A stretch of DNA of 64,000 nucleotides from Chloroflexota bacterium (GTDB lineage: Bacteria > Chloroflexota > Anaerolineae > J102): contig JAKOVD010000098.1 of the NCBI GenBank assembly GCA_029782215.1, positions 124,001 through 188,000 of the forward strand, written 5' to 3'. Under the pieces are notes generated by a model. It was given only the letters and a program-made list of their open reading frames with translations, had not been told where the DNA came from and did not search any database. Both the position numbers and the translations under genes were made by a program. Each line of letters opens with the position of its first letter. The first letter of the stretch is position 1. Shown one piece after another: positions 6,653-7,387 of the stretch.

Positions 6653-7387
6653 CTACTTCTGCGGCGCCGAGAGGTCGCCCTGGGTCTGCCAGAAGGACGA
6701 GGTCAGGCCGAGCTGCCGGAAGATCTCCTGGACCTGGGCGGCCGTGCGGCCGTGGTACTCAGGGGAAAGGCGGTTGTGATACCAGAGCTGGGAGAGCTCC
6801 CAAAGCCTGGGAAGAGCCAGGACCTCGCCGCGGGCGACGCCGCGCTGCTCGCACCATGCATCGACGGCCTCTTCCGACCGGAAGAGCAAAATGGTCGCTC
6901 AGGTGAAGACCATGTCGTCGTACCAGTTGTCGAAGGGTACGACGAAGTGCGCCACGGCGCCGTCCCCGTGGAGCTGGCCGTCCCGGACGGACAGCAGCAG
7001 TGGCTCGCCGCCTCCGGAGTCGGTCGCCTCGATGAGGGCGTCGGCATGCAGGGCGGCGGGGATGCCAAGCGCGTCCCAGGCGCAGTTGGCCCAGTAGCTC
7101 CGCCCCAGGACCTCGACCCGGAAGCCCGTGGGCACGGCCGAGAAGGGGTTGGCGATGCGGATGTCCGTGGTGCCGGGCTCCAGGAAGAAGGCGTGCCGCC
7201 CATCCAGCTCGTGATAAAGGGCTGTGGCCTCGTCAACGCCGATCTGGAACCGTGCCGCCGTGTCAGCCACCGTGGGGGGCTGTGAGGCGGCGGCGAAGGT
7301 CTGGTAGACAAAAGCGCGGACATCCCAAAGGAGAGACTCCTCGAGGGCATCCGCTTGCGGGTTCTCAGGAGAGCCGGTGTTGGACAT
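6653..7387 (-). CDS. Putative selenocysteine-containing MerB-like (alkylmercury lyase family) protein; in-frame TGA at complement(6899..6901) read as Sec
   Basis: ORFs 6899..7387 and 6653..6889 are in the same frame, separated only by TGA. Upstream half has the MerB catalytic block ANCAWDALGIPAAL (CxxD); downstream half continues the MerB C-terminus (FRSEEAVDAWCEQRGVARGEVLALPRLWELSQLWYHNRL). Confidence 0.78.
6869..6886 (-). promoter_or_regulatory. Candidate bacterial SECIS hairpin
   Basis: Minus strand CTCTTCC-GGTC-GGAAGAG: perfect 7-bp stem, GGUC loop, stem begins 12 nt and loop 19 nt after the in-frame UGA. Confidence 0.72.

What the first reader, a model, noticed from the sequence alone, without database searches (positions are those of the whole stretch)
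6653..7387. Probable selenocysteine-containing MerB-like organometal lyase
Seen: two ORFs in the same frame on the minus strand are separated by a single TGA (complement 6899..6901); the joined product is 244 residues with Sec at 163 (...DNWYDDMVFT-U-ATILLFRSEEAVDAW...). Established: MerB uses Cys96, Asp99 and Cys159. The first half carries CAWDALGIPAAL, matching CALDTLIFPAL around Cys96/Asp99 of R831b MerB, and by my by-eye alignment the TGA falls on Cys159 (FCCHVHFF versus FTUATILLF). The residue swapped is therefore the catalytic thiol. I recall, unverified, that Sec-containing MerB-like proteins have been noted in organometal-related neighbourhoods elsewhere. The context here (a secreted FnIII-like protein and a hypothetical, with no transporter) looks different.
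Basis: partly seen in the sequence, partly recalled or inferred. Interest (0 to 1): 0.92.

Follow-up and report, generated by a model that had tools for sequence, protein, structure and literature searches.

The report
Selenocysteine MerB-like organomercurial lyase family
The in-frame stop is real recoding: this bacterium makes a relative of the mercury-detoxifying enzyme MerB in which a catalytic cysteine is replaced by selenocysteine, and hundreds of overlooked relatives do the same, one branch replacing both catalytic cysteines.

Summary
Confirmed and extended. Minus-strand ORF 7387..6653 has one in-frame TGA (6901..6899). The read-through product is a MerB-family protein (PF03243, E=1.4e-28; AF2 pLDDT 94.6; best folds MerB2 and MerB). 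The TGA falls on MerB Cys159; Cys96 and Asp99 are conserved as C102 and D105. All 66 relatives from four phyla that cover the site have TGA there. The public protein database holds 115 of 119 listed relatives cut off just before it. A SECIS hairpin follows (CUUCC-GGUC-GGAAG, loop at nt 23-26). Its Arg and Ser codons are frozen across phyla, it shows compensatory changes, and it is absent from all 11 non-Sec homologues. The genome has tRNA-Sec, SelA, SelB and a Sec-type SelD. Genomes with Cys forms lack SelA (0 of 5); genomes with Sec forms have it (59 of 62). Sec-MerB-like proteins are known as SaoL, but this family scores far below the SaoL cut-off, lacks the CU motif and has no Sao operon: a new variant. 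A related clade has TGA at both catalytic cysteines (six loci read in full; 118 of 120 listed relatives stop at the first). Organomercurial lyase activity is inferred, not shown: no MerA, no conserved operon.

The parts
6653..7387 (-). Sec-MerB gene, 244 aa read through one TGA
   Evidence: AF2 model mean pLDDT 94.6
6899..6901 (-). TGA codon for Sec163, aligned with MerB Cys159
6869..6886 (-). SECIS hairpin CUCUUCC-GGUC-GGAAGAG (nt 16-33 counted from the T of TGA); GGUC loop at 6879..6876
   Evidence: core pairs kept in 81-84 of 84 sequences, loop GGUC in 82/84, compensatory changes
7082..7084 (-). Cys102 codon, aligned with MerB Cys96
   Evidence: Invariant in all loci
7073..7075 (-). Asp105 codon, aligned with MerB Asp99
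7199..7360 (-). N-terminal winged-helix-like domain (residues 10-63)
   Evidence: AF2 helices; partial LexA/MntR-like matches
6779..7144 (-). MerB catalytic domain (residues 82-203)
   Evidence: PF03243 match
6683..6778 (-). Conserved C-terminal extension (residues 204-235) beyond the PF03243 profile
   Evidence: Alignment A3 and AF2 helix 216-225
7396..8631 (-). Upstream co-directional gene, secreted galactose-binding/FnIII-like protein, 8 nt away; not conserved beside the family
6097..6606 (-). Downstream co-directional gene, weak GrpB-like; not conserved beside the family

Best explanation
The gene encodes a selenoprotein of the MerB superfamily. At codon 163 the ribosome, SelB-GTP and Sec-tRNA(Sec) read UGA as selenocysteine, directed by the GGUC-loop SECIS hairpin about 20 nt downstream (strongly supported by sequence). 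The protein most likely cleaves carbon-metal bonds as MerB does. The Sec163 selenolate (MerB Cys159 position) and Cys102 (Cys96 position) capture an organomercurial, Asp105 (Asp99 position) delivers the proton to the carbon leaving group, and Hg(II) stays between Se and S until small thiols remove it. Sec would make the enzyme a higher-affinity scavenger for trace organomercury. The chemistry and the substrate are inferred.
For: Sec decoding: tRNA-Sec, SelB, SelA, SelD with its own Sec at the catalytic site. TGA in 66/66 site-spanning relatives, with the search patterns placed outside the TGA. SECIS conservation, compensatory changes and codon freezing. Cys counterparts P0046 and P0085 with Cys in the same column. 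Full-length Cys forms occur in genomes without SelA (0/5 against 59/62; Fisher p=6e-6, lineages not all independent) and lack the hairpin. MerB fold and triad: Pfam 1.4e-28 (6), profile against MerB2 1.3e-21 and MerB 1.8e-12, the eleven significant Foldseek matches all MerB or MerB2.
Against: No activity data. No MerA over its cut-off, and the nearest oxidoreductases lack MerA's C-terminal vicinal cysteines. No mer gene next to it and no conserved neighbourhood across 48 loci. The residue on MerB Cys117 is not Cys in the window protein (reading). TM-scores to MerB2 are moderate (0.63/0.74). The genome is a MAG with 5.4% estimated contamination and the sel genes lie on other contigs.
Confidence: 0.78

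Rival explanations
1. A genuine Sec protein on the MerB fold that does not cleave C-Hg bonds: it binds or senses a soft metal or metalloid (Hg, As, Te, Sn, Pb), or acts on another organometal or organoselenium substrate, using the N-terminal winged helix and the Cys/Sec pair.
For: Winged-helix N-terminus with partial LexA/MntR-like fold matches; no MerA or mer operon; deep divergence from MerB (18-24% identity); SaoL, the known Sec relative, is named only as an organometallic lyase and its substrate was not found stated in what could be read.
Against: Cys, Asp and Sec all sit on the MerB catalytic residues and are invariant, as expected of an enzyme; the MerB fold itself includes an N-terminal helical domain.
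Confidence: 0.25
2. The TGA is an ordinary stop or a sequencing error, and the 162-aa fragment (or a pseudogene) is all there is.
For: Gene callers and protein databases stop there.
Against: The same TGA in 66/66 relatives of four phyla from independent assemblies; conserved protein downstream; frozen synonymous sites and covarying hairpin; Sec machinery present.
Confidence: 0.01
3. TGA is read as another amino acid (Trp, code 4/25) in this organism or gene.
For: One database entry (P0003) carries Trp at the site, which I read as a translation artefact of a code-4/25 gene call.
Against: TGA is an ordinary stop of three Pfam-supported genes in the window; MerB has Cys at this position; Cys forms occur in genomes without SelA.
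Confidence: 0.01

Closest known systems
SaoL (NF040728), MerB-like selenoprotein of the SAO (Sec-assisted organometallic) operon
   Same: MerB superfamily; a predicted Sec protein with one Sec; listed in PMC13188914 with motif CU. The profile ends near the U163 column, which suggests the same site (not tested directly).
   Different: Scores 31 bits here against a cut-off of 140. Thr, not Cys, precedes Sec. No Sao transporter genes alongside. No genome of 399 in the phylum has a match over the cut-off. A C-terminal extension is present.
Canonical MerB (R831b; PDB 3f0o, 3f2f, 5u79)
   Same: Fold and catalytic triad positions Cys96, Asp99 and Cys159.
   Different: Cys159 is Sec; Cys117 is not kept in the window protein; 18% identity; no MerA or mer operon.
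MerB2 (PDB 5c17)
   Same: Closest solved structure (E=1.1e-11, TM 0.63/0.74); its Cys aligns with Sec163.
   Different: Cys instead of Sec; Ser at the Asp99 position; 24% identity.
E. coli fdhF SECIS (recalled, not retrieved)
   Same: Hairpin just 3' of UGA with a GGUC-containing apical loop, at nt 22-25 in fdhF and 23-26 here.
   Different: Shorter perfect stem without the bulged U17.

Membership tests
Bacterial selenoprotein | In-frame UGA conserved across relatives and matched by Cys in homologues | tested here: met
   66/66 TGA; Cys in P0046, P0085, L086 and L110-type homologues
Bacterial selenoprotein | SECIS hairpin immediately downstream, G/U in the apical loop | tested here: met
   GGUC loop in 82/84; core pairs 81-84/84; compensatory changes; synonymous freezing
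Bacterial selenoprotein | SelA, SelB, SelD and tRNA-Sec in the genome | tested here: met
Bacterial selenoprotein | Selenium in the purified protein | not testable with these tools
   Needs 75Se labelling or mass spectrometry
MerB superfamily (PF03243) | Profile match over the gathering score | tested here: met
   99.9 bits against 27
MerB superfamily (PF03243) | Catalytic Cys96, Asp99, Cys159 (or Sec) | tested here: met
   C102, D105, U163
MerB equivalog (NF009710 / NF033555) | Score over the curated cut-off (193 / 200 bits) | tested here: not met
   33.4 and 28.7 bits
MerB equivalog (NF009710 / NF033555) | Organomercurial lyase activity, mer operon or MerA partner | tested here: inconclusive
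   No MerA over cut-off and no mer neighbours; activity not testable here
SaoL (NF040728) | Score over the curated cut-off (140 bits) | tested here: not met
   31.2 bits; dual-Sec members 38-48 bits
SaoL (NF040728) | CU motif | tested here: not met
   TU in the window protein and in all site-spanning loci
SaoL (NF040728) | Located in a Sao transporter operon | tested here: not met
   Neighbour Pfam and clustering

The most novel reading that the evidence does not exclude
A sister clade of MerB-like enzymes uses two selenocysteines as the complete catalytic pair: TGA codons replace both Cys96 and Cys159 (motif W-Y-G-Q-U-G-x-E ... U-x-x-M-x-L-F-R-S-E-E-H, with Glu usually at Asp99). It is a large clade of doubly selenium-dependent organometal lyases that gene callers reduce to about 90-aa hypothetical fragments. 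Together with the single-Sec family of the window, it means Sec is a common catalytic residue of the MerB superfamily.
Probability: 0.8. Interest if true: 0.87.

Novelty: new variant of a known kind. Interest (0 to 1): 0.76.

Why it matters
MerB is the textbook enzyme for methylmercury demethylation. Standard gene calling truncates these proteins just before a catalytic residue, and surveys of merB stress the strict conservation of Cys96/Asp99/Cys159 (PMC8261052), so this family is probably missing from merB counts in soils and sediments (inference). It gives a natural Cys/Sec pair set for asking what selenium adds to C-Hg bond cleavage, and it ties organometal chemistry to selenium supply in Chloroflexota, Gemmatimonadota and Acidobacteriota. 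The dual-Sec clade would be a rare enzyme in which both catalytic thiols are selenols.

Tried and rejected
Conserved operon: ORFs of 48 flanking regions were clustered; recurring neighbours are mostly confined to close relatives (Gemmatimonadota-type loci), so no functional inference was drawn. MerA partner: three MerA-profile hits below cut-off, lipoamide-dehydrogenase-like or lacking C-terminal vicinal Cys (58, 60, 62). SaoL membership: rejected by score and absent from the phylum sample. The main SaoL paper (PMC9879109) and Haft & Tolstoy 2025 are not held, so SaoL facts rest on PMC13188914 and NCBIfam. Dual-Sec members were not found in a 350-genome sample of the phylum of G750, a Longimicrobiales genome; its clear hits have a single TGA. 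Fold energy alone is a weak test (mean z about -1.3, 30% of genes with p<=0.05); codon freezing and compensatory changes carry the SECIS argument.

Full report
Observation. On the minus strand, 7387..6653 reads as 244 codons from an ATG to a TAG with a single in-frame TGA at 6901..6899, codon 163. The product matches Pfam MerB PF03243 over residues 82-203, across the TGA (E=1.4e-28). TGA is an ordinary stop for three Pfam-supported genes of the same window, so it is not globally reassigned.

Sec machinery. The genome (6.3 Mb, 214 contigs, 98.6% complete, 5.4% contamination) has tRNA-Sec with a UCA anticodon, SelB, SelA and SelD. SelD itself has an in-frame TGA at its catalytic position (..AACAGUASK..; that this is the catalytic site is established knowledge of SelD), a second selenoprotein that shows the trait is in use.

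Family. In the protein database, 115 of 119 listed relatives end on the Thr just before residue 163; P0046 and P0085 read through with Cys, and P0003 with Trp, which I take to be a code-4/25 gene call. In genomes, the 37 best hits in 397 class members all contain a TGA. A scan of species genomes with peptide patterns that avoid the TGA gave 38 loci in MAGs labelled Chloroflexota, Acidobacteria, Gemmatimonadetes and Gammaproteobacteria. All 66 loci of these two sets that cover the site have TGA in the same column; Cys102, Asp105 and Thr162 are invariant.

SECIS. The stretch after the TGA encodes LFRSEE and forms CUUCC-GGUC-GGAAG with the loop at nt 23-26. Over 84 distinct Sec sequences the core pairs hold in 81-84, and the loop is GGUC in 82. 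Compensatory changes occur at 18-31 (C-G to U-A three times, A-U once), at 21-28 (C-G to U-A in two related genomes, which changes Glu to Lys) and at 22-27 (C-G to A-U once, synonymous in both codons). Arg170 is CGG in 62/64 and Ser171 TCG in 62/62, while other conserved Arg/Ser positions vary freely; the KL values are 1.55 and 1.38 bits against a median of 0.056. A synonymous-redraw fold test dips mainly at this position (z -1.4 against about 0 elsewhere). None of 11 non-Sec homologues has the hairpin.

Cys/Sec exchange. Five genomes with a full-length Cys member of this or a nearby branch (G271, G432, G470, G415, G712) all lack SelA. Of 62 Sec-form genomes checked, 59 have a clear SelA; the three exceptions are fragmented MAGs, two with partial SelA at contig edges (Fisher p=6e-6, with lineages not all independent). 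A tree built with Sec masked needs 7 changes among the Cys, single-Sec and dual-Sec states; P0046 (Cys) is sister to L062 (Sec).

Structure and active site. The AF2 model (46-row alignment) has pLDDT 94.6. Its eleven significant PDB matches are all MerB/MerB2. Profile alignment to MerB2 and MerB puts Cys102 on Cys96, Asp105 on Asp99 (Ser in MerB2) and Sec163 on Cys159. MerB chemistry uses these three residues, with Hg(II) left between the two cysteines and removed by thiols (PMC4525700, PMC8261052).

Context. PF03243 occurs once in the genome. No MerA passes its cut-off, and no neighbour is conserved across the family. The two co-directional neighbours (a secreted galactose-binding-like protein upstream, a weak GrpB-like protein downstream) are not informative. 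The lyase role therefore rests on fold and active site, not on context.

Beyond the finding. Remote hits led to a sister clade with TGA at both catalytic cysteines. Six proteins in four genomes were read in full: L094, L097, L105, L107, L128 and L132. The Cys96 column reads W(Y/F/T)(G/A)(Q/L)UG(F/L/M)(E/D), and the second TGA keeps the same SECIS. All four genomes have SelA. L106 is intermediate, with Cys first and Sec second. The first TGA is followed by a GCUGGC-N5-GCUGGC hairpin with GU in the loop, shared by all six in the RNAalifold consensus (only six sequences, so untested). A database search with the 91-aa fragment before the first TGA returned 605 proteins; of the 120 listed, 118 end exactly there and two have Cys there, and named sources include Desulfobaccales and Syntrophobacteria. 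NCBIfam has no model that claims them.

What is known. A Sec-containing MerB-like protein is already described: SaoL of the SAO operon (NF040728, motif CU; PMC13188914), listed earlier as an 'alkylmercury lyase MerB-like' selenoprotein (PMC9312934), and 'organic mercuric lyase MerB2' appears in a table of predicted selenoproteins (PMC7435645). The window family scores 31 bits against SaoL's cut-off of 140, has TU rather than CU, lacks the operon, and no genome in 399 of the phylum has SaoL over the cut-off. I rate it a new variant of a known kind; the dual-Sec clade is the most novel part. Two primary papers by the SaoL authors could not be read here, so prior description of this exact family cannot be fully excluded.

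Noticed in passing
L094:5138-5851, L097:4887-5609(-), L105, L107, L128, L132: Dual-Sec MerB-like proteins: TGA at both MerB Cys96 and Cys159 columns, usually Glu at Asp99; 605 database proteins match the fragment before the first TGA.
   Followed up: yes
L097:3930-5609(-): A dual-Sec MerB-like domain reads on in frame into an AAA+ ATPase domain (PF00004), with a third TGA further downstream.
   Followed up: partly
L040 (G181): A second in-frame TGA about 17 codons after the first, where many relatives have Cys (WC to WU); Sec or sequencing error unknown.
   Followed up: no
L015 (G000:C50:41487-42425): SelD of the window's genome has an in-frame TGA at its catalytic position, a second selenoprotein of this genome.
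   Followed up: partly
L078, L079, L080, L082, gene -1: A DoxX/MauE-like membrane protein sits directly upstream of the Sec-MerB gene in several Gemmatimonadota-type loci.
   Followed up: partly
P0003 in the protein database: A database protein carries Trp at the Sec site, probably a code-4/25 gene call that makes a selenoprotein look like a recoded genome.
   Followed up: no
window 3696-5144 (-): Radical SAM protein with a B12-binding domain a few genes downstream; no link to the Sec-MerB gene was shown.
   Followed up: no
window 5134-6084 (+): Methyltransferase with a weak DOT1-like match (PF08123, E=3e-5) in a bacterium.
   Followed up: no
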